Positions 4,110 to 19,070 of a stretch of DNA of 22,201 nucleotides are shown in pieces. Position numbers and translations under genes: made by a program. Below the pieces are notes generated by a model. The model saw only the letters and a list, made by a program, of their open reading frames with translations. It was not told the origin of the DNA and did not search any database. The stretch's first letter is position 1. The number at the start of each line of letters is the position of its first letter. Origin of the DNA: Spirochaetota bacterium (lineage in GTDB: Bacteria > Spirochaetota > UBA4802 > UB4802); NCBI GenBank assembly GCA_029548025.1, contig JAKPOE010000054.1, positions 1 to 22,201 of the forward strand, given 5' to 3'.

Positions 4110-4138
4110 TTGACATTTATGCAATAATATTGCATAAT
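4110..4138 (+). promoter_or_regulatory. Strong sigma70-type promoter of the catabolic operon
   Basis: TTGACA (4110-4115), a 17-nt spacer and CATAAT (4133-4138) give five of six -10 matches and a perfect -35. Transcription should start near 4145, leaving a leader of about 295 nt before the cupin gene. The -35 and the next 11 bases are identical to the minus-strand promoter at 19042-19070. Confidence 0.85.
4117..4137. promoter_or_regulatory. Operator: perfect 21-nt odd palindrome
   Basis: Arms TTATGCAATA (4117-4126) and TATTGCATAA (4128-4137) pair perfectly around a single central A. The site fills the -35/-10 spacer and covers most of the -10, so a bound protein would block RNA polymerase. 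Odd-length palindromes of about this size are known for IclR-family repressors such as KdgR. A near copy lies at 19043-19063. Confidence 0.85.
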
Positions 4139-4139
4139 A

Positions 4140-4439
4140 CACAATATCAGCAAGGCATATATGCTATCGTTGAAATTAAAGGAAACGGTGCTGAAGGAAA
4201 CCTGTCATGGCGACAGCTCATAATGCAGCATCACATATATGCATGTTTCGCGCTTCAGAAGCTATGGTAATGGCACCATGATATATCCGGTCAGGTCTCT
4301 GGATTTACCATAATTGAAATTCTGAGATAGTCATTGTGGCAGGTAAATGCTTATGATGTCGATGAGTCGATGAAGAGTAAAGCCCCCTATAGCAGGGAGG
4401 TTCATCATAGCACATTGTAATGATGGAGGTACATGGATT
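4140..4439 (+). other. Long, partly structured 5' leader
   Basis: About 295 nt separate the predicted transcription start from the cupin ATG. Visible structure includes an 8-bp stem TATGGTAA/TTACCATA (4263-4270 with 4305-4312) enclosing a 6-bp stem ATCCGG/CTGGAT with one G-U pair. There is also a tandem 8-bp repeat GTCGATGA (4358-4365, 4366-4373), a small CCCT/AGGG hairpin (4385-4397) and the cupin Shine-Dalgarno GGAGG (4425-4429). I recognise no known riboswitch. Confidence 0.5.
4207..4281 (+). CDS. Possible 24-residue leader peptide
   Basis: ATG at 4207 has AAGGA 8 nt upstream and opens a frame of 24 residues (starts MATAHNAASHICMFRASEAM) ending in TGA at 4279-4281. It lies within the leader, and its 3' end overlaps the first strand of the 4263-4312 stem, so its translation could affect folding. 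The peptide resembles nothing I know. It may be a leader peptide, a gene remnant or chance. Confidence 0.25.
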   Translation: MATAHNAASHICMFRASEAMVMAP

Positions 4440-4847
4440 ATGTTCATAGATTTTTCAACAATCAACGGTACCACCGTTGGCAGGCCATTTGAACGGGAAT
4501 TAAAAGTGATACTATCACCCGATACAAACCGCTCAATTAACGATTTTACCTTCATCCTGTCAACGCTTGCTCCAAACGGCGGCTGTACTGATTTTCATGT
4601 ACATGATACATCGGGCGAGCTTATGATCTTCATGTCCGGTAGTGGCAAAGCATGGTTTGAAGGCATGGAATACAAAATTAAACCAGGCACCGCACTGTAT
4701 GCTCCGCCGGGGTCAGAGCATAAAACAATGAACACAGGAAACGAACCGCTTATGATTGCCTGCATCTTTATCCCCGCCATCGCATCAGAGTATATTGTCA
4801 AAAGTGCGGAGGAAGCTAACAATGCAAAAGAGGCATCCAATGAATAA
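4440..4847 (+). CDS. Single-domain cupin protein
   Basis: This 135-residue protein is a small cupin with both conserved motifs. Motif 1 runs from Gly48 to Gly67, with likely metal ligands His53, His55 and Glu60; motif 2 (GTALYAPPGSEHKTMN) supplies His94. All four usual metal-binding residues are present, so it is probably an enzyme rather than a binding protein. Small cupins in catabolic operons act as isomerases, epimerases, decarboxylases or dioxygenases, and the reaction cannot be assigned. It is the first sizeable gene after the regulated promoter. Its last 26 nt overlap the acyl-CoA synthetase gene. GGAGG stands 10 nt before the ATG. Confidence 0.9.
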   Translation: MFIDFSTINGTTVGRPFERELKVILSPDTNRSINDFTFILSTLAPNGGCTDFHVHDTSGELMIFMSGSGKAWFEGMEYKIKPGTALYAPPGSEHKTMNTGNEPLMIACIFIPAIASEYIVKSAEEANNAKEASNE

Positions 4848-6963
4848 CGCCGGTTTTGACTTTAAAAAGCTGCATAATGAGCTTATAGCATCCGGCAACG
4901 TAATCCTGCCTGAAATAGAATCAAAGCACATAGTATCACGCTATGCCATTCCCACACCAAAAGGAAAATTTGTAACAACTATCGCACAGCTAAAGGAAGC
5001 TTCAACCTTGCTTACATTCCCCGTTGTGTGCAAGGTAAGCGGACGATTGCTGCACAAAACCGAGATTGGTGGTGTCATAACAGGTATTAAAAGTTATGAC
5101 GAATTAAAAGAATGTTTTTCCATGCTCGACAGCTCCATGAAACAAAAAAACATAGCAGGCTATAATGGGATACTTGTTGAAGAACAATGTCATGGCCATA
5201 TAGAAATGATTGCCGGCTATACCAATGACCCTGTGTTTGGACCTACCGTCATGCTGGGTTCTGGCGGCATTTATACTGATCTGTTTAAGGATGTGGTGTT
5301 TCACCATGCGCCGGTTACTGAAGAGGATGTGATGTCCATGCTTTCCAGATTGCGATGCTATCCTCTTCTGATGGGGTATAGAAATATTCCAACAATAGAT
5401 TGCAAACCATTGATACAATGCTTCATGAATTTAAACAGGTTGATTTGTGATGGCGCCCGGTATATACAATCCATAGATTTTAATCCAATTATTGTTGATG
5501 AAAAAAGCTGCGTTGTTGCCGATGCGTCATTTACCTTTTACCATGCACCCATCCCCGATCCTTTCATTGTTGAAAAACCTGCTGTGCAGCATCTGCATAC
5601 TTTTTTTAATCCAGCAAGTGTTGCCGTGGTAGGCGCTTCAACGGTTGTCAACAAAATAGGCAACGTTATTGTTGACACCCTTATCAATGGGGGCTTTCTA
5701 GGAGATATCTATCCCATCAATCCCCATCAAAAAGAGGTGCTTGGGCTTACCGCATATCATTCAATCAATGAGCTTGCAAAATCACCTGACGTCGTTATCA
5801 TCGCGGTTGATTTACAGATGGTACCTGAAATTCTTGACCAGATGCATGCAAAAGGCTGCCATAATGCAATCATTATCTCCGGCGGCGGCAAAGAGCTGGG
5901 GGGCACGCGTGAAAAGCTGGAAAAAGAAATTGAAGCAAAAGCAAAATGCTATGATATACGCATTATTGGGCCAAATTGCATTGGCGTGTTTAACTCACTC
6001 TCACGGTTTGATTCATTCTTTTATCATAGAGACAGGTTTACCCGCCCGCCGCAGGGAACCATCAGCTTCATAACTCAAAGCGGCACATGGGGAGTCACAT
6101 TTATGGAACTGGCACAAACTACAGGTTTACATATAATGGTAAGTTACGGCAACCGTGTTGATGTTGATGAGGGTGATCTTATTTCGTATTTGATGGATGA
6201 TGCCGGCACCGGTGTTATTGGCAGCTATATTGAAGGTCTGCAAAAGGGAAAAAAATATGCTGAAGCGATAGCTCATGCAATAAAAAAACACAAACCGGTG
6301 GTAGTGTATAAAACAGGCAGGAGCGACATATCGTCACAGGCCGCGATATCGCACACCGGGGCGTATGGCGGAAGTTATACGCTGTACCATGACATGTTGC
6401 AGGATGCCGGTGCGATACTTACCGATAGCCTGCATGAATGCTTTGCAGCATGTATGGCGTTATCCATGCAGCCGCCTGCAAAAGGCAACCGTGTTGCACT
6501 GGTTTCAAACGGTGCGGGACCAATGGTCAATGCACTTGACCTCTTCCCGCAGAAAAACCTTGTGCTTGCGCCGCTGTCAGATACAACAAAAAAAACCATG
6601 CGGGAGCATTTCAGCTTTTTTTACATTGTGCATAATCCTGTTGATGTGACTGGTTCAGCCACCTCCGATGATTATGACTTTGTATTGCAGCAGCTTATGA
6701 ATGACGACGGCGTGGATATCATTATGCCGTTTTTTGTTTTCCAGAATACACCGCTTGATGAGGCAATCATTGAAAAGATGAAAAGGCATTCTGATTTACA
6801 AAAAAAACCCATTGTTTGCAGTTGCACTGAAGGCACGTATTCACAACGCATGAACAATAGATTAATACATGCAGGCATACCGGTGTTTCATGAAATCAGT
6901 CACTGGGTTGTTGCAGTGTATGCTTTAATGCAATGGGGAAAAATTATTCAGCACGAGGTGTAA
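4822..6963 (+). CDS. NDP-forming acyl-CoA synthetase, ATP-grasp domain first
   Basis: This family interconverts an acid, CoA and ATP with acyl-CoA, ADP and phosphate; in fermenters it often runs toward ATP. In the 713-residue protein the ATP-grasp part comes first (about residues 10-240; FPVVCKVSGRLLHKTEIGG and GPTVMLGSGGIYTDLFKDVV). The CoA-binding Rossmann part begins near residue 260 (FFNPASVAVVGAS), and the ligase-type domain carries the phospho-histidine motif SHTGAYGG with His511. Many bacterial homologues have the opposite domain order. The ATG at 4822 is chosen for GGAGGA 8 nt upstream; ATG at 4840, which touches the cupin stop, is an alternative. The next gene starts after a single base. 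The acyl substrate is unknown; a product of the neighbouring BKACE is a reasonable guess. Confidence 0.93.
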   Translation: MQKRHPMNNAGFDFKKLHNELIASGNVILPEIESKHIVSRYAIPTPKGKFVTTIAQLKEASTLLTFPVVCKVSGRLLHKTEIGGVITGIKSYDELKECFSMLDSSMKQKNIAGYNGILVEEQCHGHIEMIAGYTNDPVFGPTVMLGSGGIYTDLFKDVVFHHAPVTEEDVMSMLSRLRCYPLLMGYRNIPTIDCKPLIQCFMNLNRLICDGARYIQSIDFNPIIVDEKSCVVADASFTFYHAPIPDPFIVEKPAVQHLHTFFNPASVAVVGASTVVNKIGNVIVDTLINGGFLGDIYPINPHQKEVLGLTAYHSINELAKSPDVVIIAVDLQMVPEILDQMHAKGCHNAIIISGGGKELGGTREKLEKEIEAKAKCYDIRIIGPNCIGVFNSLSRFDSFFYHRDRFTRPPQGTISFITQSGTWGVTFMELAQTTGLHIMVSYGNRVDVDEGDLISYLMDDAGTGVIGSYIEGLQKGKKYAEAIAHAIKKHKPVVVYKTGRSDISSQAAISHTGAYGGSYTLYHDMLQDAGAILTDSLHECFAACMALSMQPPAKGNRVALVSNGAGPMVNALDLFPQKNLVLAPLSDTTKKTMREHFSFFYIVHNPVDVTGSATSDDYDFVLQQLMNDDGVDIIMPFFVFQNTPLDEAIIEKMKRHSDLQKKPIVCSCTEGTYSQRMNNRLIHAGIPVFHEISHWVVAVYALMQWGKIIQHEV

Positions 6964-6964
6964 T

Positions 6965-7801
6965 ATGCAAAAGCTTATCATAACCGCAGCCCTGACCGGC
7001 GGGATTCATGGCAAGGAAGCAAATCCGGCATTACCTGAACAGCCCGACGAGATTATACAGGCTGCGTACGATTGCTACAACGCAGGAGCGGCAATTGTCC
7101 ACATCCATGCGCGTGACAGGGATGGGAACCAAACTGCATCGAAAGATATTTTTGCTACAATCAACAACGGTATTAAAAGCAAATGTCCTGTTATCATTCA
7201 AAATACAACCGGCGGTCCGGGGCTTCCTGTAGAGGAGCGCATTGCATCGCTTGATGCACATCCCGACTCGGCTTCGCTCAATTGCGGCTCGGTGGTGTTT
7301 TTTTATCAGGGCAAACAGCTCCCTTTCCATAACTATCGCCATGAAATTGAAGCCTTTGCGCAGGCAATGTTACAGCGGACCATAAAGCCTGAACTGGAGG
7401 TTTACAACCCTTCCATGTTCCTTGAGGTTGAAAACCTCATTGCAAAGAATCTACTTGCTTTACCATATTATATAAATTTAGTCATGGGCGTCAATGGCAT
7501 GGGAGGATATCCCGGTACGCCTGAAAATTTTTTAACGATGCTGCGTCATCTACCAGACAACAGTATTTGCAATGTATCCGGTATTGGCAAATATCAGCTT
7601 ACCATGAACACCATGGCAATACTTACAGGTTGTAATGTTAGAACAGGGCTTGAAGACAATGTGTTTTATCATAAGGGGAAGCTTGCAACATCAAATGCAC
7701 AGTTAGTGGAAAGGGTTGTGCGGCTTGCAAAAGAACTTGGCAGAGACATTGCTACCCCTGATGAGGCACGTACACTCCTGAGGATAGGAGGAGCATCATG
7801 A
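6965..7801 (+). CDS. Beta-keto acid cleavage enzyme (BKACE, DUF849)
   Basis: BKACE enzymes are zinc-dependent and convert a beta-keto acid plus acetyl-CoA to acetoacetate plus a new CoA ester. The 278-residue length is normal. Zinc ligands His46 and His48 (VHIHAR) and Glu230, with Arg226 and Asp231 in VRTGLEDN, fall at the same numbers as I remember for the founding member Kce. Position 14, which I recall as a substrate-amine-binding Glu in Kce, is Ile here (GGIHGKEANPAL), so an amino-keto acid is an unlikely substrate. GAGGTG lies just upstream. The stop overlaps the next ATG by 4 nt, pointing to coupled translation. Confidence 0.95.
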   Translation: MQKLIITAALTGGIHGKEANPALPEQPDEIIQAAYDCYNAGAAIVHIHARDRDGNQTASKDIFATINNGIKSKCPVIIQNTTGGPGLPVEERIASLDAHPDSASLNCGSVVFFYQGKQLPFHNYRHEIEAFAQAMLQRTIKPELEVYNPSMFLEVENLIAKNLLALPYYINLVMGVNGMGGYPGTPENFLTMLRHLPDNSICNVSGIGKYQLTMNTMAILTGCNVRTGLEDNVFYHKGKLATSNAQLVERVVRLAKELGRDIATPDEARTLLRIGGAS

Positions 7802-8424
7802 AGATTGCAGTTATAAACGAAACAAGTGCCGCGGATAAAAATGCTGATATCATGCAGGCGTTACAAAACAGAGGACATGAAATTATCAATGCAGGCATGA
7901 CCATAAGCGGACAGTCGCCGGAAATTACCTACATTCACACGGGATTGATGGCCGCTTTGCTGTTAAACGCAAAACGGGTTGACCTTGTTGTTGGAGGGTG
8001 TGGTACCGGACAGGGATTTTTAAACGCTGTAATGCAATATCCCGCTGTAATGTGCGGACATATTGTAACACCGCTTGATGCATGGCTTTTTGCGCAGATT
8101 AATGGCGGCAACTGTATCTCGCTTATGCTTAATCAGGGATACGGGTGGGCATCAGAGCAAAACCTTACTTTTATATTTGACGCATTGTTTTCGGTTCAAT
8201 GGGGAAACGGCTATCCAGCGCACCGTAAAGAATCACAGCAAAGCTCCCGCCAGCTTTTATCTGCCATTTCAAATCTGACGCATGCTTCCATGGCACACAT
8301 TATGCAGGCATTGCCCGATGAGGTGGTAAAGCCTGCTTTAGAATATCCTGGCTTTATTGATAGTATGGATGTACCATCGCTTGACGATGAACTTAAACAT
8401 GCCATCGTAGCAAGGATATCGTAG
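7798..8424 (+). CDS. RpiB/LacAB-fold isomerase, long divergent form
   Basis: The 208-residue product matches the RpiB/LacAB sugar-phosphate isomerase fold. It has the conserved GGCGTGQG motif with the likely catalytic Cys68, followed by VMCGHIVTPLDAWLFAQINGGN, which aligns with the His region after that motif in RpiB. Two things differ from ordinary RpiB (about 150 residues). The N-terminal Asp-His pair that helps bind phosphate is replaced by INETS, and there is a C-terminal extension of about 60 residues. The substrate may therefore not be a simple pentose phosphate. AGGAGG precedes the ATG, which overlaps the BKACE stop. Confidence 0.85.
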   Translation: MKIAVINETSAADKNADIMQALQNRGHEIINAGMTISGQSPEITYIHTGLMAALLLNAKRVDLVVGGCGTGQGFLNAVMQYPAVMCGHIVTPLDAWLFAQINGGNCISLMLNQGYGWASEQNLTFIFDALFSVQWGNGYPAHRKESQQSSRQLLSAISNLTHASMAHIMQALPDEVVKPALEYPGFIDSMDVPSLDDELKHAIVARIS

Positions 8425-8551: not shown

Positions 8552-8589
8552 TTGATAGAATAATGCTATTTTTCAAAGGAGCTACCATC

Positions 8590-10455
8590 ATGAACACAGG
8601 CATACAGCAAAGAGCGGCTGCCATTGCACGTCACAGCTCATTGCACAAAGCTGTTTTACAGGGAACTATCGCACAGTACCAGGACATCACTGTTTCAGAA
8701 GCTCTTGTACTTGGATTGTTACAACAGGGTGTGACCAGGTATTTTGGCATCTTTGGACATGGTTCAACCGCCATTGCGGAGGTCCTCCGTATTTACGAAT
8801 ATCACGGACTGGTGCACACCTATAACCTCAGACACGAGACGGCAGCTTCGCATGCCGCTACCATGCTCAATATGCTCACCGGCGAAGTGGCGGCGGTTGT
8901 TACGTCAATAGGGCCCGGTGCATTACATGCATTTGCAGGTTCGCTGGCATCAGCATCAAACGGTGCCGGCGTTTACCACATATATGGCGATGAAACAACC
9001 CATGATGAAGGCTTCAACATGCAGCAAATACCAAAGGATGAGCAGGCGCTGTTCCTTAAGCTGTGCAGTGTCATGGGGAATGCCTATGCACTGTACGAGC
9101 CATGGAGCGTTATCTCTGCGCTTAAACGCGGAGCGGTGTGCACAAAAGGGCTGCCGTTTGCTCAACCGTTTTTTTTGCTTGCGCCCATGAATGTACAGCC
9201 GGCAGTGCTTACACACTTTAATCTTTTGCAGCTTCCCCATGCACATCGCCATGTTCCTGTTGTGTGCTACGATGATGCTGTTTTTGAAAAGGCAACCGCG
9301 CTGGCAAAAAATGCAAAGCGGGTAACCATTAAGATTGGTAACGGCGCACGGGGTTGCGGCAGTTATATTGAAACGCTTGCCAACCTGCTTGATGCCGCTA
9401 TTGTCAGCGGTCCCTCAAGCGCCGGCATCGTTCCCTACACCAATCCCAGGTACATGGGCGTGGGCGGTTCCAAGGGTTCACTGTCCGGCAACTTTGCAAT
9501 GGAAGCTGACTGCATCATTGTTATAGGTGCACGCGGCGTGTGTCAGTGGGATTGCTCGGGCACTGCATGGAAGAATGCGCGTTCCATCGTCAACTTTAAT
9601 GTCAATCCATTTCACGCAGCTCACTATAACCGCTGTGTTTCAGTTGTTGGCGACGCACAGGGTAACCTGCAACGGTGGATTGAGCACCTGCGGGCTAACG
9701 GCTTTTCTATGGGCGATAGTCACTCTGAATGGTTTTTAGCATTACAGGAAAAGAAAGCACAATGGCAGGCATTGAAGCAGCAGCGCTTTGATTGCCCGGT
9801 ACTATTTGATGAGATGTGGAAGCGGGATGTGCTCACACAGCCTGCAGCAATAAAGACAGCATGCGATTTTGCGGATGAACACAATTATATAAAAGTTTTT
9901 GACGCCGGCGATGTGCAGGCTAATGGCTTCCAGATTATTGAAGATAAGCACGAGAAGCAAACCATAACCGAGACTGGAGCATCGTATATGGGCTTTGCAT
10001 CATCATCGGTGCTTGTTTCCGGCATTGTTGACAAAAAGATGATGGCTTTCTGCGGTGATGGCAGTTTTATAATGAATCCACAGATTTTAATTGATGGTGT
10101 TGAGCACGGTGCCAACGCTACCATCATTATTTTTGACAACAGAAGGATGGCAGCCATCACCGGCTTGCAGTATGCTCAGTATGGCAGCGAATACAAAACA
10201 TCGGATAGTGTTGCTGTAGATTATGTTGCGATGGCTCATTCGGTTCATGGTGTGCAGGGTATCTATGGCGGTTACACCCCTTCTGAATTGATGCAGGCAT
10301 TACAGAAAGCAGATCAATACAGGGGACTATCGCTCATACATGTTCCGGTATATTATGGTCAAAACGAGCTTGGCGGCATGGGTGTATTTGGCAGCTGGAA
10401 TGTTGGCAGCTGGTGTTCACAGGTTCAGGAGGAATATCACCGACAGGGCTGGTGA
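8590..10455 (+). CDS. IolD-like ThDP-dependent enzyme
   Basis: This 621-residue protein has the three-part layout of ThDP enzymes. The N-terminal Pyr domain contains GIFGHGSTAIAEVL and the cofactor-activating Glu83 in YNLRHETAASHAA. A central domain follows, and the C-terminal PP domain carries the ThDP/metal motif from Gly489-Asp490-Gly491 to Asn517. Length, the GIFGHG segment and the terminal SW-rich tail fit IolD (trihydroxycyclohexanedione hydrolase) better than acetolactate synthase. Cyclohexane-1,2-dione hydrolase is a related enzyme and an alternative role. The start at 8590 is set by AAAGGAG 8 nt upstream. It is the last gene of the plus-strand set, separated from the RpiB-like gene by 165 nt of hairpins. 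Confidence 0.85.
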   Translation: MNTGIQQRAAAIARHSSLHKAVLQGTIAQYQDITVSEALVLGLLQQGVTRYFGIFGHGSTAIAEVLRIYEYHGLVHTYNLRHETAASHAATMLNMLTGEVAAVVTSIGPGALHAFAGSLASASNGAGVYHIYGDETTHDEGFNMQQIPKDEQALFLKLCSVMGNAYALYEPWSVISALKRGAVCTKGLPFAQPFFLLAPMNVQPAVLTHFNLLQLPHAHRHVPVVCYDDAVFEKATALAKNAKRVTIKIGNGARGCGSYIETLANLLDAAIVSGPSSAGIVPYTNPRYMGVGGSKGSLSGNFAMEADCIIVIGARGVCQWDCSGTAWKNARSIVNFNVNPFHAAHYNRCVSVVGDAQGNLQRWIEHLRANGFSMGDSHSEWFLALQEKKAQWQALKQQRFDCPVLFDEMWKRDVLTQPAAIKTACDFADEHNYIKVFDAGDVQANGFQIIEDKHEKQTITETGASYMGFASSSVLVSGIVDKKMMAFCGDGSFIMNPQILIDGVEHGANATIIIFDNRRMAAITGLQYAQYGSEYKTSDSVAVDYVAMAHSVHGVQGIYGGYTPSELMQALQKADQYRGLSLIHVPVYYGQNELGGMGVFGSWNVGSWCSQVQEEYHRQGW

Positions 10456-10552: not shown

Positions 10553-12004
10553 CTATCCAGACACCTTTGAGCACTGTTTGCGAATGAATTGTTTTCTTTT
10601 GAATGCAAGGCATAGCCCATACAAACGGACAGCCAGCCGTACCATCATCGCAATCAGCCATTGCGTGATACGATTTGTTAACAGAGGGCTATCCAGAATG
10701 CTGCGTATCCTTTGCAGAGTTTTTGCATCGGATTTGTTAAGTACAGGGATTGTCTGGACATCATCAGTTTGAGGCGATGCAGGATGGAAATGCTCACGGA
10801 CAGAACGGGAAGAAATCCATCGCAGCAAAAAAAATATAATCCCTGCAAGAATATCCCGGACACGCCTATCCATCATAGCATTATGCGGCTGCCCTGCTGC
10901 TAACGAAACAACCTGAGTAAGATGCATTATTTTTATTTTTCGTCTGGTTACATACTGCGCAACTGAAAGGAAGATGTAGCAAGCAGGGCAGCCTGTCACC
11001 ATTACATCAGCCTTTGCATCCACACCCTCGCAGAGCCTTTTGTCAAGGCTATACAGCAGATACAGGGCAATTCCAAAAAGTGAGGCATTGCGGTAAAGCG
11101 ATGGTATTGTGGCTGCCCATCCGCAGCACAGCGATTTTTCTTTTGCATGCTCCATCTCAACAGATAAGCCGCCGCACCGTTTTACAATCTCGCGCATTGT
11201 TTTTTGCGGTTTGCCGTTGAGGTATCGTGACATGCAATTATCATGCACGGCAATCCGTATGGCAAGGGGAGCACTTATTGTAATATCGCCCTGTTTTATT
11301 TGCTGCAAAAGCCATTCTTCTATCGGGATTATAGTGATATTATAATCAATGCCATAATACTGGGGAAGTATCTCCTGAAGCATGGCTGCCTCGGCTTCCA
11401 TAAAGCAGATAACCTTTTTAACCTTCATGGAATGGAGCTTGTTTTTCAACAGCAAAGCCACCTTTTCAGTGATGTCAACAAGTCCCAGCTTATGAGCATC
11501 ACCACCACATCCCCATAACCCTTCACTCCCCGCAATGGGAATGGTGGAATTTTGAAACATTACATGGTCTAAAAGAAAAGGAACAAGGTTTGTATAAAAT
11601 CCGGTTAGCATAATGGTGCTATGCTTTTCATGGAGATTGTTTTCCCACTGTTTTAAAAAGTGTTTTTCTTTCCGAGTCAAAAGAGCCCCTGTTATTGCCC
11701 ATATATTCAGATACTCATTGGGGAAAACCAATCGTGCAATCCCCGGCAGGCCTTTATTGCGCTGGGCTTCATCATAACGTTCCAGAACAAGCTCGTATGG
11801 ATGTGATTGTGTTGGGCATATAACGTTGCAAGCGTTGCAGGTTGTACAATATGATAGCGATAGTGACTCATTAATTGAGCCTTCCCGTGCAATGATTCTA
11901 TCCCTGCGTGCTGCACCGGCTGGGAGCGAAACTACTGGACAAAAAGAAAGGCATTGACCACATACACGGCAGCGATTGTCACGAAACCAGCGGTATTGTT
12001 TCAT
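10553..12004 (-). CDS. Fe-S oxidoreductase subunit with a degenerate CCG domain
   Basis: This 483-residue protein is of the HdrD/GlpC type that passes electrons between flavoenzymes, quinones or disulfides. Two [4Fe-4S] motifs lie at Cys12/15/18/22 and Cys53/56/59/63. Two CCG-type domains follow. The second looks intact (LCCGWAATIP, then TGCPACYIF). The first has lost key cysteines: GCGGD where CCG is expected and CFMEAE where CTAG is found in the partner. A tail of about 100 residues has two hydrophobic stretches (LAGIIFFLLRW, LIAMMVRLAVRLYGLCLAF) that may touch the membrane. It starts 2 nt after the partner's stop, so the two are probably translated together and may form one complex. Confidence 0.88.
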   Translation of the reverse strand: MKQYRWFRDNRCRVCGQCLSFCPVVSLPAGAARRDRIIAREGSINESLSLSYCTTCNACNVICPTQSHPYELVLERYDEAQRNKGLPGIARLVFPNEYLNIWAITGALLTRKEKHFLKQWENNLHEKHSTIMLTGFYTNLVPFLLDHVMFQNSTIPIAGSEGLWGCGGDAHKLGLVDITEKVALLLKNKLHSMKVKKVICFMEAEAAMLQEILPQYYGIDYNITIIPIEEWLLQQIKQGDITISAPLAIRIAVHDNCMSRYLNGKPQKTMREIVKRCGGLSVEMEHAKEKSLCCGWAATIPSLYRNASLFGIALYLLYSLDKRLCEGVDAKADVMVTGCPACYIFLSVAQYVTRRKIKIMHLTQVVSLAAGQPHNAMMDRRVRDILAGIIFFLLRWISSRSVREHFHPASPQTDDVQTIPVLNKSDAKTLQRIRSILDSPLLTNRITQWLIAMMVRLAVRLYGLCLAFKRKQFIRKQCSKVSG

Positions 12005-12006
12005 GC

Positions 12007-13224
12007 TTAAAAATCCAGCTTTTTTACATCAACCCTGTGACGGTTTAACGAGAACAGCAGTGGTACCTGATGTTTTAAAACGCCAGCAAACAATGTTTGT
12101 GCTCTGTTTTTGTTAAGCCGTGCAGGTTTTTCGCCAATTGCCATCTGCAAAAGTTCCAGAATGTGATACACCGGCATTCTATTGAATGGATATAAAATTT
12201 GCCCCACCGTAAGCATCTGGAGGCAACCTGCACAGTAAACTGCAATGGCATCAGCACCCGTTTGTTTAGCTAACCCAAGAGAGCGAAACGTTTCATGAGC
12301 AATATCAACAGGATGATATCCCGATTTAACACTGAAGCCTCCGGCAATGCCACAACAGAGAGCATGGCTTCTGATCAATTTTTCTTCAATAACCTGTACA
12401 CCTATGCTGTTGAGAATCTTTCGCGGAATATCCATATAATCATTGCCGAAAATCTTGCCGTAGCATGATTCCTGTACTGTCACAGTCATATTTAATTTTT
12501 CTTTGATTACTATCTCACCTTTTTCCATCCGTTCCCATAGCCAGGGAAGTATATGCACAACCTCAAAATCAAATTTAACGCCAGATGATGGAAGGACATT
12601 GGTAAACATGTTGCGCCCTGCTGTACAGGGGATGATCATCTTCCGCACGCCTAACTTTTTAAAATATCGCTCCAGACGTTCCGCCACTTTGTACATCTCA
12701 TCGATAAGCCCCATGCGGTAATAGGTTTCGCCGCAGCAAACATCAAGGCTTCCTCTAATTTCCAGCCCTTCCAGAAGCGATGTTTGTGTTAAATAAGGGG
12801 CGGTAATGATATTGCAGCCGGGATACAATATTTCCGCACATTCAGAGGTATCCTTCCATTTTTCAATCAGTGCTCGCTCGTCATACGGCAGCCTGTCAAC
12901 GACATAGGTGCGGAAGTTTGTACTATGATTGGGGTCAAAATACCTTGCTCTCAGCGGCAGACCTTTACTGCGGTATGCATTATGCCATAGGTCAATTATC
13001 TGCTGAGCAGGATTACATCCCTGCGGACACACAAGGTTACAGGCAAAACAGGTGGTACACCGCTTCATTATTTTTGCAGAAACCCTGCCTCTGTTTAATT
13101 TTTTCCTTTCGCTGATAGCTTCATCAGGTTTCATCTGTAAAACCGGACATTGGTGCAAGCATTCCCCGCATTCTTTGCATCGTGATATATCAAATGGGCT
13201 TGTAAAGCTGCGCAATTGTTCCAT
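12007..13224 (-). CDS. Fe-S oxidoreductase subunit, HdrD/GlpC-like (two CCG domains)
   Basis: The 405-residue product has [4Fe-4S] motifs at Cys16/19/22/26 (CKECGECLHQCP) and Cys56/59/62/66 (CTTCFACNLVCP). Two cysteine-rich CCG domains follow: first YPGCN, VCCGETYYRMG, CTAG; second ESCYGK, LCCGIAGGFS, YCAGCL. Such subunits relay electrons from dehydrogenases (glycerol-3-phosphate, lactate, electron-transfer flavoprotein) or reduce disulfides; the partner dehydrogenase is not in view. The start is ATG at 13222-13224 with AAGGA 6-7 nt upstream. A TTG at 13242 extends the frame by six residues but lacks a Shine-Dalgarno. Its own palindromic operator lies just upstream, so it need not be cotranscribed with the CoA-ligase gene. 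Confidence 0.9.
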   Translation of the reverse strand: MEQLRSFTSPFDISRCKECGECLHQCPVLQMKPDEAISERKKLNRGRVSAKIMKRCTTCFACNLVCPQGCNPAQQIIDLWHNAYRSKGLPLRARYFDPNHSTNFRTYVVDRLPYDERALIEKWKDTSECAEILYPGCNIITAPYLTQTSLLEGLEIRGSLDVCCGETYYRMGLIDEMYKVAERLERYFKKLGVRKMIIPCTAGRNMFTNVLPSSGVKFDFEVVHILPWLWERMEKGEIVIKEKLNMTVTVQESCYGKIFGNDYMDIPRKILNSIGVQVIEEKLIRSHALCCGIAGGFSVKSGYHPVDIAHETFRSLGLAKQTGADAIAVYCAGCLQMLTVGQILYPFNRMPVYHILELLQMAIGEKPARLNKNRAQTLFAGVLKHQVPLLFSLNRHRVDVKKLDF

Positions 13225-13251
13225 ATCCAATTCCTTTACCAATCAAGGATG

Positions 13252-13277
13252 ATGGTACTATAAAATTATAGTACCAT
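13252..13277 (-). promoter_or_regulatory. Palindromic operator over the -10 of the Fe-S operon
   Basis: Arms ATGGTACTATAA (13252-13263) and TTATAGTACCAT (13266-13277) pair perfectly around AA. On the minus strand the right arm contains a consensus -10, TATAAT (13265-13270). The -35 is weak (GCATGT or TTGCAT near 13289-13296). The site is 28 bp upstream of the ATG at 13224. It differs from the TTATGCAATA operator, so a different regulator is implied. Confidence 0.75.
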
Positions 13278-13383
13278 TGTCATGAACAACATGCAACAAA
13301 TAAAAAACGTTGCTCCTGCACCAGCTCCAGAAACAGGTTCATTAAAAAGCTACACCATCATTTATCCATAATCACAGATTTTT

Positions 13384-15231
13384 TCAGTTTCGTGATAAAA
13401 CAGCCTCCCTGCCATTTGTCTTAAATGCTTCTTTGATTTTAACAAACTCATCGTATGTTAAAAGCCTGTAGGTATTGTCGCCTCGCTGGCGGAAATAAAT
13501 TTTCATGGTGGGGTTGTTATCAAGATTAAAGTTTTCTTTTTTAAAGGGCCTCACCATAATTTTTTGTGTATTGGTCACAGAAAATTTATCAATTATTCTA
13601 ATGTAATCCGGCATCCACTTTGGGTCCATCCCACCCTCTTTCTGCTGCTGCATAAACCAGTGGTACACTTCATCAGGATTAAAAGATGCGCCCTCTTTCA
13701 TCTGTATGGTAATCATAACCTTTTCATCGGAAACCTCGCTGGGGATGCCGTAAGCAATTGCAATGTCCACGCCTGGAATTCTGTGTGCATAATCAAGAAC
13801 GTTCTCAGCAGAAAAATTTTCGCCATCCTTGCGAATCCAGTCATCAGTTCGGCCATTGAAAAACAAATATCGTCTGCCATTGATGATTCGTATGTGCCCC
13901 AGATCTCCCGAATGGTACCACCCATCACGAAATTTTTGACTGGTTGCCTTTTCATTCCCAAAATATCCTTCAAATCTAAGGTTACTATCGCCAACCTTAC
14001 GGCATATCTCGCCCACGGCTTTATCATAATTAATCAGAGCTCCATTTTCATCTACTATGCCCGGCTCGCACTCCTTCCCTTCTTCATTCAATATTTTGAT
14101 AGATGAATCAACCCTGCCAACAGAATCGATTGGGTCCCCCGGAAGGTTGGCAGTGGTAATAACCGCTTCGGTTGAACCATAAATCTCGTAAATGTGCTCC
14201 ATGCCCAGGTAGCGCTTTAATTTTATACGATCGGTCACCGTTGCACCGTTTCCATACGCTTTGCGAAATTTATTGCGCGGATGATGTGCCAGCGCTGCTT
14301 CCACCGCTTCACCGCTGCCATACTTGCGCTCCAGTGCTTCAATAATGTAATGCAGTGGCTGCCCAACATAGTTAAGGAAGGTTACTCCATAGCGCAGCAT
14401 ATCCTCCTCAAAGGCGCTGGCAGAAAAACGCCTTTTCAAAACAAAGCTTCCGCCAACAATCAATTGCGGCAAAATTCCAATATACCATGCATTGGAATGA
14501 AACAACGGCATGGAAATATAACCGCGATCATTTTTATTGAGATGGACGGCAAATTGCACAATAAATCCTGCTCCCACCAGTTTAATATGGGTACAGGGAA
14601 CGCCTTTGGGCAGCCCTGATGTGCCGGAGGTATAGATGACAATGACGGGACTAAAATTATCAATTTTTGTTCGATAGTTTTTGGGGATATTTTCATGCTG
14701 AGCATGGTCAACAGCTTCCTCAAGGGAGTGGAACCCCTGAGCAGCGTAACCATTGTTGTTGCCAGCATAATAGATGTCATCTGCATGAATCACCGTACTA
14801 TTGTTGATGATTGGTGCAACCTCATGTACTGTGCTTTCATTGATAATGAGAAACGAGATGTTTGCCTGATCTATAACCTTTGCCAGTGTTTCCCCTCTGA
14901 ATCCGGTATTGATAGCAAAGAGGATAGAGTTGCTCAAACCCGCACCAAACGAGGCAAAGATAAATTCCGGGTTGTTATCCATGTAAACGCCAAAAGCAAG
15001 CCTTTGATTGTCATGCAACCTTCCACTTTCAATAAGCTTTTTACGCATGCTTAAAAAAAATGTTGCATAGCGCTTTGACTGTTTATACACCTCGTTATAC
15101 GTGTATTCACGACCTTCAAAGATAAAAAAGACCCGTTTTCGCCTGAACCAGAGCCAGTGCATTGTTAATTGAATCATTGTGCTGAAATTGACAAAGCTCA
15201 AATAATTGCGTATCAGTTTTTTAAGATTCAT
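13384..15231 (-). CDS. Fatty-acid/very-long-chain acyl-CoA ligase, FATP/VLACS type
   Basis: This adenylate-forming enzyme makes acyl-CoA from an acid, ATP and CoA. In the 615-residue protein the AMP-binding signature is at about 196-212 (VIVIYTSGTSGLPKGVP), followed by YGSTEA, DGWYHSGDLG, FNGRTDDWIRKDGENFS and the C-terminal lysine region TNTQKIMVRPFKKENF. The order and the FATP-style C-terminus point to the very-long-chain synthetase branch, whose substrates include long fatty acids and, in some members, bulky alicyclic acids. An N-terminal stretch, residues 11-30, is moderately hydrophobic. AGGAGG lies 9 nt upstream of the ATG at 15229-15231. It precedes the Fe-S pair on the same strand with a 159-nt gap holding a separate operator. 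Confidence 0.92.
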   Translation of the reverse strand: MNLKKLIRNYLSFVNFSTMIQLTMHWLWFRRKRVFFIFEGREYTYNEVYKQSKRYATFFLSMRKKLIESGRLHDNQRLAFGVYMDNNPEFIFASFGAGLSNSILFAINTGFRGETLAKVIDQANISFLIINESTVHEVAPIINNSTVIHADDIYYAGNNNGYAAQGFHSLEEAVDHAQHENIPKNYRTKIDNFSPVIVIYTSGTSGLPKGVPCTHIKLVGAGFIVQFAVHLNKNDRGYISMPLFHSNAWYIGILPQLIVGGSFVLKRRFSASAFEEDMLRYGVTFLNYVGQPLHYIIEALERKYGSGEAVEAALAHHPRNKFRKAYGNGATVTDRIKLKRYLGMEHIYEIYGSTEAVITTANLPGDPIDSVGRVDSSIKILNEEGKECEPGIVDENGALINYDKAVGEICRKVGDSNLRFEGYFGNEKATSQKFRDGWYHSGDLGHIRIINGRRYLFFNGRTDDWIRKDGENFSAENVLDYAHRIPGVDIAIAYGIPSEVSDEKVMITIQMKEGASFNPDEVYHWFMQQQKEGGMDPKWMPDYIRIIDKFSVTNTQKIMVRPFKKENFNLDNNPTMKIYFRQRGDNTYRLLTYDEFVKIKEAFKTNGREAVLSRN

Positions 15232-15592
15232 ATATAATACCCTCCTGTTATAAAAGATATATCGTTAGCCTAACCGGTATGTATACATAATCCATCAGTC
15301 ATGCTATCCTTTTCATAATAATACAAAATTGTATAATAAATACATTATAGAAAAAAATGATATACCTATTTGTAAGTTCATAACAATAGAATATTTGCGC
15401 AACAAAAAAATAATATATATGACAATGTTACATCATGACAACGATATGTAAACTTTTTAAAGAAGTTTTAATGTATTTTTAATAGGTAATGTTTGGTGGC
15501 ATACTATGCAGGAAACATAAGCATTATGATATAGCAACCAGGCTTTACTACTGTACACAAGAGGCTTTTCTTTCAATTATAAACAATTATAA
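15232..15592. other. AT-rich intergenic region with small palindromes
   Basis: There is no gene in this gap. It holds palindromes TATGTATACATA (15278-15289) and ATACAA/TTGTAT around AA (15321-15334), a spaced repeat TTACAT/ATGTAA (15428-15451), and an AT-only hairpin AATTATAA/TTATAATT (15575-15594) at the 3' end of the antitoxin gene. The first two lie upstream of the CoA-ligase gene and could be operators. No consensus promoter is clear. Confidence 0.45.
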
Positions 15593-15802
15593 TTATTGTA
15601 CCATTTTATCAATGGTTACAAACTTTGTCTTTCCACCCTTTTCACACTTTTCAAAGGCTTCTATTATCTTATCTTTTATATCCTCATATAATTCCCACAG
15701 GGATTTTTTTATGAGCGTGGAAGCGTCACAGTTATAATGTTTTTTAAGAATCTTTACTATCTTTTCCTCTTTTGCATTAAATCGTACACTTGTTACTGCC
15801 AT
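15593..15802 (-). CDS. Probable antitoxin (ribbon-helix-helix-like)
   Basis: This 69-residue protein begins MAVTSVRFNAKEEKIVKIL, the strand-then-helix pattern of ribbon-helix-helix antitoxins (RelB or DUF6290-like), followed by charged helices that would wrap the toxin. Its start overlaps the toxin stop by 10 nt and has a strong AGGAGG (15813-15818), so it may be translated in excess of the toxin. It lies downstream of the toxin gene, the reverse of the more common antitoxin-first order. Family assignment is by pattern only. Confidence 0.75.
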   Translation of the reverse strand: MAVTSVRFNAKEEKIVKILKKHYNCDASTLIKKSLWELYEDIKDKIIEAFEKCEKGGKTKFVTIDKMVQ

Positions 15803-16062
15803 TGATCATATACCTCCTCTCGCTTTCCTATATAAACAATATAAAAGTCATCATTTTCTATAAAGAACATTGTCCTGAATTTTCCTTTCCGTAATCGACA
15901 ATAATTTCTTCTAAAACTTCCTTTCACCTTTTTGACATCAAACAAATTCAAATCTTTTGTTAAATCAAGCGATACAAAGGCATTATGAAATCGTTTTACT
16001 ATCTTTGTCGGAATATCACTCTTCTTAATTGCTTTTTGAACTTCCTTATCATAATAAATCAT
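15793..16062 (-). CDS. RelE/ParE-family toxin
   Basis: The 89-residue product has the RelE/ParE-fold signature in its C-terminal half: a small core ending in CRLRKGKFRTMFFIENDDF, then YIVYIGKREEVYDQW, close to the family pattern of a conserved YRlr..fR, beta strands and a final vghR..vY. RelE members cut mRNA on the ribosome and ParE members block gyrase; the sequence alone does not decide. The ATG at 16060-16062 has no Shine-Dalgarno, consistent with weak toxin translation. It is followed by the overlapping antitoxin gene. A palindrome overlaps the promoter. Confidence 0.82.
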   Translation of the reverse strand: MIYYDKEVQKAIKKSDIPTKIVKRFHNAFVSLDLTKDLNLFDVKKVKGSFRRNYCRLRKGKFRTMFFIENDDFYIVYIGKREEVYDQWQ

Positions 16063-16136: not shown

Positions 16137-17498
16137 TTACCCAATTTCTTCCACTATCTTCCGGTGCATTTTCTCATCAATGGGGAAAAGCCATATAAAC
16201 ACAATACCGACGATAATAAGCAGCATGGGGATAATGGTACTCAGCAGCCGTATACCGGTAAGCGCACCTTCAGTCTGCATTCGGGAGGTTAATGTGTTAT
16301 CAACAAGAAACGGTTGCAAGTAGCCACACAGCGTTAGCCCAATACCGATGATAAATCCCGCACAGGCTGCTGCTAATTTCTGGCTGAAATAAAAAAATCC
16401 ATACAAAATGCCTTCTCTGCGTATGCCTGTTTTCCACTGCGAGTATTCAACAGTATCGGGGATCATTGCCCATGGACTGAAGAACACGGTGGAGATGCTG
16501 ATACCCGCAATGACGAATAGCACAATAAAAAGAACACTATTAAATTCCTTAACAAAAAACAAAACAAGCAGTATAACAGCAAGCATCCCCATACCTGCGT
16601 TGAATGCATGTTTTTTGCCCATCTTTTGCGATAAAAAAACCCATAGAGGTATTGCCACCGCCGCTGTTGCAAACATACATAAAAATGCAACCGGAACAAA
16701 TTCCTCTTTTGCATAATTATACTTGAGCAGATAATTTACCATCGATGCCAGCACGCCTATTGCACACAAATGTAAAAACACACCTATCGATAAAAAAATA
16801 AACGGTTTATTTACCTTTAACGTTGTGGCAATATCGCGCAGATGATATTCATCGGTATCCTTATGCTGTATGCGCTCCTTTACTGTGGCAAATGTTACAA
16901 GGGTAAAAAATGCTGCTATGGCGCCGTACAACATTCCAATAAAGCGCCACCCTTCAACGGAACTATCGAACAAACCAACAAGAGGCTTTGTTGCCCCTGC
17001 TACAAATAATGTGCCCAGTATCGCAAAAAACATACGGTAACCGGTTAGGCGTGAGCGTTCGTTGGTATCAAGGGTAAGGTTTGCCGTCAAAGCGCCGTAA
17101 GGAATATTAACAACGGTGTACGCAGTGCATACCAGCAAAAACATCACCAGCGCATACATTGTTTTTGATGAACCTTCAAGCGCAGGAGTATAAAAAAGTA
17201 GCATCATACAAATACCCAGAGGCAGCGCACCAAAAAGAAGATATGGCCGCTTCTGCCCCCACCGTGATTTTGTTCTATCGCTGATGTACCCCATCATTGG
17301 GTCGCTTACTGCATCCCATATCTTTGCAATTAAAAAAATTGTGCCGGCAACTCCCGCAGGTATCAAAAAAACATCTGTTAAATAAAACATTAAAAAAAGA
17401 ACTACCGACTGGAACACCATGTTGGCGCCAAAATCACCAACGGCATATCCTAATTTTGTTATGAGTGATAAACCGGTTTGTGCTATACTCTGTTTCAT
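16137..17498 (-). CDS. GPH-family sugar:cation symporter (MFS)
   Basis: This 453-residue inner-membrane transporter has about twelve hydrophobic segments. Its N-terminal motif WDAVSDPMMGYISDRTKSRW followed by GQKRPYLLFG is diagnostic of the glycoside-pentoside-hexuronide:cation symporter family, which brings in sugars, glycosides, uronates and some sulfonated sugars with H+ or Na+. The ATG at 17496-17498 is chosen for GGGAGG 6 nt upstream; a TTG at 17519 would extend it by seven residues. It starts 17 nt after the oxidoreductase stop, so both genes share the operator-bearing promoter near 19050. I infer that it imports the substrate of the catabolic set. Confidence 0.93.
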   Translation of the reverse strand: MKQSIAQTGLSLITKLGYAVGDFGANMVFQSVVLFLMFYLTDVFLIPAGVAGTIFLIAKIWDAVSDPMMGYISDRTKSRWGQKRPYLLFGALPLGICMMLLFYTPALEGSSKTMYALVMFLLVCTAYTVVNIPYGALTANLTLDTNERSRLTGYRMFFAILGTLFVAGATKPLVGLFDSSVEGWRFIGMLYGAIAAFFTLVTFATVKERIQHKDTDEYHLRDIATTLKVNKPFIFLSIGVFLHLCAIGVLASMVNYLLKYNYAKEEFVPVAFLCMFATAAVAIPLWVFLSQKMGKKHAFNAGMGMLAVILLVLFFVKEFNSVLFIVLFVIAGISISTVFFSPWAMIPDTVEYSQWKTGIRREGILYGFFYFSQKLAAACAGFIIGIGLTLCGYLQPFLVDNTLTSRMQTEGALTGIRLLSTIIPMLLIIVGIVFIWLFPIDEKMHRKIVEEIG

Positions 17499-17515
17499 AC
17501 GAAACCTCCCCTCAA

Positions 17516-19018
17516 TCAAATTCCAAATGCTGAACGCAATCGCAGCGCCTCTTCCGACTTCCCTTCAATTTTCAGCAACCCCTGAAGATACGCCATTTCA
17601 ATGCGTTTCTTTTTGAGTAAAATTGCAGCCCATACGCCTGCCTGCGCGGTAATCTTCATGTCCCATTTTTCAGGGAGCGCCCCTTCCTTTACCATCAACG
17701 CGCCATTATTAATTGCAATGCTGTACAGAAACTCATCGGCATTGCCCTCTTTTTTTATATGCAGGGCGATAGTTACTGTCCACTGTTTTGCTGCCTCGGG
17801 ATTATACCGCTTTATAAATTGCCGGGTCAGCTCTTTTGCCTGTGGCGCATATTTTGCAAAGTTTGCCGATAAGCCAAGGCGCTCAGCAATGCTTTTTTTG
17901 GGCTTTTTTGCCTTGAGCTCTTTGCAGTGGTGGCGAACATAGTAAAGTGAGGGAAATTTGCTGTCCAGTTCGTGTGTATAAACCTCCCTGTTAAGCCGGG
18001 CCGATTTTTGAATTGCTAAAGAAAAGCGCAAAATTTCACGTGCATCCCTTCCTGAAAGCATGGGCTCTTCTTTACCAAGAATTGCGTTTATAAAATTATG
18101 GGTAGCGCCCACAAATCCAAGGCTCCAGTCGGATGGAACATTGTAGTTTTTCCATCCCTTGTTAGTAAAAACTCCAACAACCGGGCCTTTATTAATACTC
18201 CCCGTACATCGACGTATAACTACTATACCATGAGTGCCACTTACCTCTATCCACTCATCATTGGCATAATATTTACAGGGGATGGTAAGCGAAGGCAAAT
18301 GAACAAACTCAATTGAGCCGTAACATCCATTGTCATACTTCCACATCATGACTGCAGGAGCATCAATAATGCCATCAATTGAGTCAATCCATCCTGCTGT
18401 CTTTTCAACACCGCCGCATAAATACCATGCTGTTGTCCATAGGTGATGTCCATGATCAAATGTATCAAGCCCGCGCATGCCACCGCTCTCGGTATTTTCC
18501 TTAATCCGCCACTGCCATGCTTCTGGCGGCACATGCCACCCGCCGCTGCCTCCTCCAATAAATTTTATGCGCAGGGCAATAGGTTTTCCAATTTCGCCGT
18601 TATCTATAATCTTTTTTGCCAGCCTGATAGGCGGGTAAAATGGATAGTTATCGGTAACCTTAAAAATTTTACCGGCAGTGTCTGTCGCAGCAATTATGCG
18701 GTCGGAACTTTTCAGGTCAACCGTCATGGGTTTTTGCAGTGCAATATGTTTTCCGGCATGAGCGGCAGCTACCGTCATTGATTCATGGAGCGAGTGAGGG
18801 GTTAGAATTTCAACGGCATCAACATGTGCATCAGCTACAAGATCACGGTAATCGGTATATACTTTTTCGGCATTCCATTGTTTTTTTCTTTTCTGTGCAA
18901 GTTCAAGGTTACTATCGCACACCGCATATACCTTTGCCTGTTTATTATTGGTATATCCCAGATAATGAAGATCGGCAATGCGTCCCAGCCCAATAAAACC
19001 TATCTGTATAGATTTCAT
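17516..19018 (-). CDS. Gfo/Idh/MocA oxidoreductase fused to an SCP2 domain
   Basis: Residues 1-120 form a Rossmann fold (IGFIGLGRIADLHYLG) with the family Lys-Pro at 96-97, although the usual EKP reads QKP here. The middle C-terminal-type domain contains GGMRGLDTFDHGHHLW, the likely Asp/His catalytic region. Such enzymes oxidise or reduce sugars, inositols and related polyols with NAD(P). After about residue 400 comes an SCP2 (sterol-carrier) domain: NNGALMVKEGALPEKWDMKIT, then MAYLQGLLKIEGKSEEALRL. At 500 residues it is about 130-150 longer than plain family members. GGAGG is 4 nt before the ATG. It is the first gene of the operon with the symporter. Confidence 0.93.
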   Translation of the reverse strand: MKSIQIGFIGLGRIADLHYLGYTNNKQAKVYAVCDSNLELAQKRKKQWNAEKVYTDYRDLVADAHVDAVEILTPHSLHESMTVAAAHAGKHIALQKPMTVDLKSSDRIIAATDTAGKIFKVTDNYPFYPPIRLAKKIIDNGEIGKPIALRIKFIGGGSGGWHVPPEAWQWRIKENTESGGMRGLDTFDHGHHLWTTAWYLCGGVEKTAGWIDSIDGIIDAPAVMMWKYDNGCYGSIEFVHLPSLTIPCKYYANDEWIEVSGTHGIVVIRRCTGSINKGPVVGVFTNKGWKNYNVPSDWSLGFVGATHNFINAILGKEEPMLSGRDAREILRFSLAIQKSARLNREVYTHELDSKFPSLYYVRHHCKELKAKKPKKSIAERLGLSANFAKYAPQAKELTRQFIKRYNPEAAKQWTVTIALHIKKEGNADEFLYSIAINNGALMVKEGALPEKWDMKITAQAGVWAAILLKKKRIEMAYLQGLLKIEGKSEEALRLRSAFGI

Positions 19019-19041
19019 GACACCTCCATTTATTATTGCAT

Positions 19042-19070
19042 ATTATAAAATAGTATTGCATAAATGTCAA
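19042..19070 (-). promoter_or_regulatory. Consensus promoter of the oxidoreductase-symporter operon
   Basis: On the minus strand TTGACA (19065-19070), exactly 17 nt, then TATAAT (19042-19047): a perfect sigma70 consensus. The first 17 bases, TTGACATTTATGCAATA, are identical to the promoter at 4110-4126. The predicted leader to the ATG at 19018 is under 20 nt. Confidence 0.88.
19043..19063. promoter_or_regulatory. Second copy of the TTATGCAATA operator
   Basis: The plus strand reads TTATAAAATA (19043-19052), G, TATTGCATAA (19054-19063). One arm is identical to the operator at 4117-4137 and the other differs at two positions. A further half-site, TATTGCATA (19034-19042), lies 20 bp away, two helical turns, on the gene side. 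Confidence 0.82.

What the first reader, a model, noticed from the sequence alone, without database searches (positions are those of the whole stretch)
4110..19070. One operator in two distant promoters defines a regulon across the window
Seen directly: the plus-strand promoter at 4110-4138 and the minus-strand promoter at 19042-19070 share 17 identical bases (TTGACATTTATGCAATA) and the same odd 21-nt palindrome placed between -35 and -10, perfect at 4117-4137 and with two arm mismatches at 19043-19063. The downstream genes are the cupin/acyl-CoA synthetase/BKACE/RpiB-like/IolD-like set and the oxidoreductase-SCP2/GPH symporter pair. From family knowledge, IclR proteins bind such sites and one is encoded beside the first operator. 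Inference: a single IclR repressor coordinates uptake and breakdown of one substrate.
Basis: partly seen in the sequence, partly recalled or inferred. Interest (0 to 1): 0.82.

Follow-up and report, generated by a model that had tools for sequence, protein, structure and literature searches.

The report
Three-box operator of a spirochaete IclR regulon
Two promoters at the two ends of one sugar-type catabolic gene cluster in an uncultured spirochaete carry the same repressor-binding sequence, which is conserved in related genomes and most likely lets one IclR-family repressor switch uptake and breakdown genes together; the finding is real, but of an ordinary kind.

Summary
The two promoters share 17 bases and a palindrome that is perfect at 4117-4137 and imperfect at 19043-19063, far beyond chance (first and second of 44,326 positions with a matrix trained on other clades). 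The regulon reading is well supported. The box precedes the cupin gene in 13 of 13 relatives where that gene was mapped. It precedes the Gfo/Idh-SCP2 gene in register in 9 of 16 relatives; 4 have a weaker, displaced palindrome, 2 have none (gene inside the operon) and 1 has none (regulator and ThDP gene not found). In the nearest held genome the two promoters are the top two hits genome-wide.

Two corrections. The operator is not just a palindrome: it is three 9-bp boxes in alternating direction, 1 bp apart, from the -35 spacer to about +1. At the second promoter the middle box has become a consensus -10. A weaker copy sits on iclR's own promoter. Also, the 15-kb distance includes about 5.5 kb of genes absent there in three relatives.

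Three-box IclR operators are already described (PMC8222616), so this is a new regulog of a known kind. Binding and substrate are untested.

The parts
3238..3999 (-). iclR: IclR-family regulator, 253 aa (GTG start)
   Evidence: Pfam IclR_C 1.1e-39 and HTH_IclR 4.9e-14; orthologues in 15 of 46 class genomes
4014..4042 (-). weaker three-box element on the iclR promoter: box1 4042-4034 CGTGCATTG, box2 4032-4024 CATTGCATA, box3 4022-4014 TATGAAACA; possible autoregulation
   Evidence: third-best boxes-only site in the window (11.6 bits); same register in 10 of 15 iclR upstream regions, scores -9.0 to 16.5 bits; alignment A5
4110..4138 (+). promoter of the cupin operon: TTGACA 4110-4115, 17 bp, CATAAT 4133-4138
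4118..4146 (+). three-box operator: TATGCAATA 4118-4126, TATTGCATA 4128-4136, TACACAATA 4138-4146
4440..4847 (+). cupin-domain protein
   Evidence: Pfam Cupin_2 6e-13
4831..6963 (+). ADP/NDP-forming acyl-CoA synthetase (ATP-grasp_5, Succ_CoA_lig, CoA_binding_2)
6965..7801 (+). BKACE (beta-keto acid cleavage enzyme)
   Evidence: Pfam 5.8e-91; solved Kce relatives such as 2y7d
7798..8424 (+). RpiB/LacAB-like isomerase
   Evidence: Pfam LacAB_rpiB 2.2e-13; NCBIfam PRK09273 2.4e-61, above its cut-off
8584..10455 (+). ThDP enzyme, IolD/acetolactate-synthase superfamily
   Evidence: three TPP_enzyme domains; IolD model hit far below its cut-off
16137..17519 (-). GPH-family sugar:cation symporter
   Evidence: TIGR00792, 363.5 bits against cut-off 231.35
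17516..19018 (-). Gfo/Idh/MocA oxidoreductase fused to an SCP2 domain (gfoSCP)
   Evidence: Pfam GFO_IDH_MocA 1.3e-21 and SCP2 1.9e-7
19034..19062 (-). three-box operator: TATGCAATA 19062-19054, TATTTTATA 19052-19044 (middle box altered), TATGCAATA 19042-19034; the two outer boxes are a direct repeat 20 bp apart
19042..19070 (-). gfoSCP promoter: TTGACA 19070-19065, 17 bp, TATAAT 19047-19042

Best explanation
The IclR-family protein encoded at 3238-3999 is a local repressor that binds a three-box operator (TATGCAATA-n-TATTGCATA-n-TATGCAATA) lying over the -35 spacer, the -10 and the start region of two strong sigma-70-type promoters. It shuts off the cupin-acs-BKACE-RpiB-ThDP operon and the gfoSCP-GPH symporter operon together, and perhaps more weakly its own gene. 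An inducer made from the transported substrate would release it. Shown: the sites, their register within the promoters, their conservation and scarcity elsewhere in relatives' genomes, and co-occurrence with this IclR. Inferred: that this IclR is the protein that binds, that it represses, and that there is one inducer. Substrate: probably a sugar, sugar acid or cyclitol, not determined.
For: A matrix trained on 9 cupin promoters from other clades ranks the two window sites first and second of 44,326 positions (40.9 and 40.0 bits; the next entries, 20.4 and 13.7, are the reverse readings of the same two sites). Box at the cupin promoter in 13 of 13 relatives whose cupin gene was mapped. gfoSCP in 16 relatives: box in register in 9, weaker displaced palindrome in 4, none in 2 where the gene has moved inside the cupin operon, none in 1 (G032) that has no IclR or ThDP match at the cut-offs used. 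The two promoters are the top two distinct sites genome-wide in G001, G002, G004, G038 and G028. In SAR324 genome G009 and unclassified genome G012 the best hit of the same model lies in the gap just upstream of the ThDP gene. In G029 a box precedes another Gfo/Idh-GPH operon. A three-box element lies on iclR in the same register in 10 of 15 upstream regions.
Against: No binding data. G029 has boxes, and G030 a weak displaced one, but neither has a detected IclR (their operon contigs begin inside acs, so assembly gaps are likely but not proven). The iclR-promoter copy is weak: 11.6 bits in the window, only 2.3 and -9.0 in two of the ten, absent in 5 of 15. Unassigned sites outside the pathway exist: a 19.3-bit one in G001 and a 21.7-bit one in G012, both between reading frames and not explained. 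In G012 the IclR-like gene is not beside the box-bearing cluster. In Desulfobacterales genomes G011 and G013 the model gives at best 15.9 and 14.3 bits. The co-occurrence test is partly circular: 12 of the 16 box-positive genomes supplied training sites and G001's site is identical to the window's; the cut-off was chosen after seeing the scores and the genomes are related.
Confidence: 0.85

Rival explanations
1. The box is a real operator but is bound by a different transcription factor; the neighbouring IclR regulates something else.
For: G029 (boxes) and G030 (weak, displaced box) have no detected IclR orthologue. In G012 the IclR-like gene and the box-bearing cluster are on different contigs.
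Against: Three boxes in alternating direction are a documented IclR-family operator form (PMC8222616). Each of the 15 IclR-positive class genomes has a box of 24.5 bits or more, and 1 of 31 IclR-negative ones does. A box lies on iclR itself in the same register in 10 of 15.
Confidence: 0.09
2. IclR acts mainly as an activator or a dual regulator at these promoters.
For: IclR-family activators with three-box sites exist (PcaU and PobR have such sites in PMC8222616; that they activate is seen only in a cited title and a PDB molecule name). The conserved TTGACA on the iclR promoter stands 21 bp from the -10-like CATAnT, an abnormal spacing.
Against: In both catabolic promoters the boxes overlap the -35 spacer, -10 and start of near-consensus promoters that should need no activator.
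Confidence: 0.1
3. No operator: the similarity is shared sigma-factor consensus plus AT-richness or a recent duplication.
For: Promoter hexamers account for part of the match; the local sequence is AT-rich.
Against: With the -35 columns removed, the two sites still rank first and second in the window (31.3 and 31.1 bits; next distinct site 10.8, on the iclR promoter). The C of boxes 1 and 3 is invariant in 13 cupin and 10 gfoSCP rows. The 30 class genomes with no IclR, G029 set aside, give at most 21.3 bits.
Confidence: 0.02

Closest known systems
IclR-family three-box operators (32 orthologous groups in PMC8222616; PcaU, PobR, HmgR)
   Same: Three boxes in alternating direction; a palindromic pair plus an external direct repeat.
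   Different: Box sequence TATGCAATA matches neither published consensus (GKTYCRYW3-4RYGRAMC, TGRAACAN1-2TGTTYCA), and Spirochaetota do not appear in that survey's Table 2. PcaU and PobR control aromatic catabolism.
A/T-rich palindromic IclR-family sites (IclR, KdgR, AllR; grouped so in PMC8222616)
   Same: A/T-rich inverted repeat; carbon catabolism (the latter recalled for these regulators).
   Different: Here a third box is present, and the middle box can lose its conserved G.
Inositol (iol) catabolic clusters (gene roles recalled)
   Same: Gfo/Idh dehydrogenase, IolD-like ThDP enzyme, isomerase, sugar symporter.
   Different: IolD and IolG model scores are far below their cut-offs. BKACE and an acyl-CoA synthetase are present; no iol kinase or aldolase among the 11 cluster proteins scanned.

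Membership tests
IclR-family transcription factor | HTH_IclR and IclR_C domains above the Pfam cut-offs | tested here: met
   52.3 bits against 22 and 136.2 against 24
IclR three-box operator (PMC8222616) | three half-sites in alternating direction | tested here: met
   13 cupin and 10 gfoSCP rows; the middle box has lost its conserved G in 7 of the 10 gfoSCP rows
[quoted passage not shown]
   about 4 of 7 positions per half, compared by eye with the consensuses quoted; so: same architecture, different sequence
IclR three-box operator (PMC8222616) | third box needed for binding (shown for PcaU, as cited there) | not testable with these tools
   -
Regulog of the window IclR | site upstream of the same operons in relatives that hold the regulator | tested here: met
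   13 of 13 mapped cupin promoters; 9 of 16 gfoSCP in register
Regulog of the window IclR | direct binding by the IclR protein | not testable with these tools
   -
iol (inositol) pathway | IolD and IolG equivalog scores above cut-off | tested here: not met
   IolD 122.2 against 715 bits; IolG 106.4 against 355 bits

The most novel reading that the evidence does not exclude
In the window clade the gfoSCP promoter has given up the invariant G of the middle box for a perfect TATAAT -10, leaving two direct repeats 20 bp (about two helical turns) apart. If IclR still represses there, it must bind head-to-tail outer boxes without an intact palindrome. The same regulator would then use two binding modes at two promoters of one pathway, leaving uptake and first oxidation leakier than the downstream enzymes.
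Probability: 0.25. Interest if true: 0.5.

Novelty: new member of a known kind. Interest (0 to 1): 0.35.

Why it matters
It gives a predicted regulator, operator and gene set for a catabolic cluster of unknown substrate in uncultured Spirochaetota. The IclR/ThDP/Gfo-SCP2/GPH part of that cluster recurs in a SAR324 and a Desulfobacterales genome. The co-regulation narrows the substrate search to something handled by a GPH symporter, a Gfo/Idh dehydrogenase, an IolD-like ThDP enzyme and BKACE. The two promoter forms make the alternative dimerisation modes proposed for IclR proteins testable at natural sites.

Tried and rejected
Candidate extra sites: G001 C5:283511, G026 C36:6344, G037 C26:203684 and G002 C136:14962 lie inside reading frames and were set aside. 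G001 C5:220879 (19.3 bits) and G012 C75:138684 (21.7 bits) lie between reading frames; they are neither explained nor excluded. A plain pattern scan with up to 3 mismatches gave 4 places in G001: the two promoters plus C23 and C49, whose surroundings hold no matrix hit of 11 bits or more. In the same scan 10 of 13 genomes had a match, and the reversed control pattern matched in 2 of 13. The fadD-hdrB-hdrA genes between the two operons have no box in the window. An IclR search in 291 genomes of the order of G013 found only G013 itself at E up to 1e-60, so the box could not be followed further there. An IclR search of plasmid records gave only matches under 60% identity. An inositol-pathway assignment was considered and not accepted. 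No structure prediction was made.

Papers: spirochaet + 'IclR family' + regulon found none. BKACE / beta-keto acid cleavage / spirochaet with at least two terms gave 7 papers, none with spirochaet. Inositol + beta-keto acid cleavage + IolD with at least two terms gave 51 papers; the 10 listed have no beta-keto acid cleavage. Searches were searches on PcaU and three-box operators. Of PMC8222616 I read section 13 whole and passages elsewhere; all other papers were seen only in search listings.

The cupin matrix gave 0.01 hits per 22 kb at 20 bits or more in 100 Markov-simulated windows. One search's background quantiles include true operators in their upper tail and are not used as P values.

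Full report
Observation. The two promoter regions were read directly. On the plus strand TTGACA (4110-4115) and CATAAT (4133-4138) are 17 bp apart; on the minus strand TTGACA (19070-19065) and TATAAT (19047-19042) are 17 bp apart. The first 17 bases are identical. The 21-bp palindrome is perfect at 4117-4137 and has 2 mismatches at 19043-19063; it occurs nowhere else in the window at up to 3 mismatches, and 0.01 matches are expected by chance.

Source of the DNA. Protein searches and the nearest locus place the window in an uncultured Spirochaetota genome. The closest held contigs come from 'Spirochaetia bacterium UBA2205' (IclR 96% identical). The window's own genome is not held.

Relatives. 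Of 46 genomes in the class of G001, 15 have the IclR orthologue at E up to 1e-40, 14 the gfoSCP protein at E up to 1e-60 and 14 the ThDP enzyme at E up to 1e-150; 11 have all three. Fragments of gfoSCP were seen in two more, G003 and G004. Clusters were fetched and mapped by tblastn. The common order is iclR divergent from cupin-acs-BKACE-RpiB-ThDP, with gfoSCP and often gph nearby. In G002, G026 and G027 ThDP and gph face each other about 10-20 bp apart, and in G002 the two promoters are about 9.6 kb apart. In the window, fadD-hdrB-hdrA and a small ORF lie between ThDP and gph, which accounts for most of the larger distance of 15 kb; which state is older was not tested.

Operator anatomy. The aligned promoters (A3: window plus 12 relatives at cupin; A4: window plus 9 relatives at gfoSCP) show three 9-bp boxes after TTGACA (TTGC in place of TTGA in two cupin rows): TAT(G/A)CAATA, TATTG(C/T)ATA, TAT(G/A)CAATA, each 1 bp from the next, so the outer two form a direct repeat 20 bp apart. 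Mean matches per 9-bp box are 8.5, 7.9 and 7.8 at cupin and 8.5, 8.0 and 7.1 at gfoSCP, against 3.4 for shuffled letters. L054 (G001) is identical to the window at the cupin site and was left out of A3. In 7 of 10 gfoSCP rows (the window clade) the middle box contains ATTTTATA and forms a TATAAT -10; the G that is invariant in all 13 cupin rows is lost.

Tests. (a) A matrix trained on nine cupin promoters from clades other than the window's scores the window sites 40.9 and 40.0 bits, first and second of 44,326 positions; the next two entries (20.4, 13.7) are the reverse readings of these sites. With the -35 columns and the last two columns zeroed the values are 31.3 and 31.1, and the next distinct position is the iclR promoter at 10.8.

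(b) A sequence-only model (R1) of the cupin promoters was run on 46 whole genomes (stricter filters; weak matches beyond the listing not shown). Twenty-four rows score 24.5 bits or more, in 16 genomes; one is a reverse reading, leaving 23 sites: 13 at cupin promoters, 8 at gfoSCP promoters, 1 in G026 (C67) between a BKACE fragment and iclR at a contig start, which looks like a strain variant of the end of C43, and 1 in G029 (C74) before a TIM-barrel epimerase-like gene, Gfo/Idh, GPH symporter, Gfo/Idh and GH13 glycosidase. The highest score in the 30 genomes with neither IclR nor such a box is 21.3, inside a reading frame of G037. IclR by box: 15 both, 0 IclR only, 1 box only (G029), 30 neither; Fisher P 3e-11. 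This P is optimistic: 12 training genomes are included, the genomes are related, and the cut-off was set after seeing the scores. Genomes that gave no training site and show the box are G003, G027 and G029 (G001's site is identical to the window's). In G001 the third hit (23.3 bits) is inside a reading frame; the fourth (19.3 bits) is in a gap between frames and unexplained.

(c) gfoSCP promoters in 16 relatives: 9 in register; 4 with a weaker palindrome not in register with a TTGACA (G007, G008, G030, G031; for G008 the displayed 150 bp begin at the palindrome); 2 without a box because gfoSCP directly follows ThDP in the cupin operon (G006, G043); 1 without a box (G032), which also has no IclR or ThDP match at the cut-offs used.

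(d) Outside the class, R1's best genome-wide hits in G009 (SAR324; 25.3 bits, the only hit at E up to 1; on the strand facing away from ThDP) and G012 (26.5 bits) lie in the gap upstream of the ThDP gene. G012 has a further 21.7-bit hit between reading frames, not explained. In the Desulfobacterales genomes G011 and G013 hits are weak (15.9 and 14.3 bits).

Autoregulation. The iclR promoter carries CGTGCATTG-T-CATTGCATA-G-TATGAAACA at 4042-4014. The same register is found in 10 of 15 iclR upstream regions, ending 14-15 bp before the start codon in six and overlapping the start codon in four; 5 of 15 have none. The scores run from -9.0 to 16.5 bits, much lower than at the catabolic promoters. 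In two of the ten (G002, G003), where the forward score is 2.3 and -9.0, a reverse reading shifted by one box scores 16.0 and 18.3. The TTGACA to CATAnT distance of 21 bp is unexplained.

Mechanism. The boxes cover the RNA polymerase contacts of two near-consensus promoters, so repression by occlusion, relieved by an inducer, is the most likely mode (inference). IclR-family proteins can bind DNA as tetramers, and three-box sites in alternating direction were predicted for 32 orthologous groups and reported for PcaU, PobR and HmgR (PMC8222616).

Comparison. The architecture is the known three-box kind; the box sequence fits neither published consensus (compared by eye). The pathway is not the known iol pathway by model cut-offs. 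In the SAR324 relative L005 the cluster holds an IlvD/EDD-type dehydratase and an aldehyde dehydrogenase; L012 and L083 have a 563-aa frame in the same place that looks alike by eye, and L012 an aldehyde dehydrogenase. This points to a sugar or sugar acid; the substrate is undetermined.

Verdict. A real, conserved local regulon: a new member of a known kind.

Noticed in passing
window 10553-16062: Two Fe-S/CCG (heterodisulfide-reductase-like) proteins, a fadD-like acyl-CoA ligase and a small ORF (RelE/ParE-like by eye, untested) lie between ThDP and gph; nothing lies between these two genes in G002, G026 and G027.
   Followed up: partly
L061 11865-12645 (G004): The cluster has collapsed: an N-terminal piece of acs next to fragments of gfoSCP, with no ThDP match in the genome, yet iclR, cupin and both operators remain. 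Either recent pathway loss or an assembly fault.
   Followed up: no
L117 4604-11249 (G029): A three-box site precedes a second operon: TIM-barrel epimerase-like, Gfo/Idh, GPH symporter, Gfo/Idh, GH13 glycosidase. Possible regulon extension hinting at a glucoside-type substrate.
   Followed up: partly
L064, L065, L067, L068 at the iclR start: The conserved iclR box overlaps the ATG with no room for a leader; iclR may be read from a leaderless mRNA.
   Followed up: no
L005 13178-16379; L012 13044-14735; L083 12791-14482: In SAR324, Desulfobacterales and unclassified loci an IlvD/EDD-family dehydratase (Pfam-tested in L005 only) stands between ThDP and gfoSCP; cupin, acs, BKACE and RpiB were not found in these 20-kb loci.
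   Followed up: partly
window 1043-3234: Three genes (methyltransferase-, PanC- and small lipoprotein-like by eye) upstream of iclR keep this order in G001, G002, G004, G026 and G027; no box of 11 bits or more lies on them in the window.
   Followed up: no
L126 about 1500 (G012 C75) and L115 4380-4408 (G001 C5): Box-like sites of 21.7 and 19.3 bits between reading frames and away from the pathway; could be further targets or chance.
   Followed up: partly
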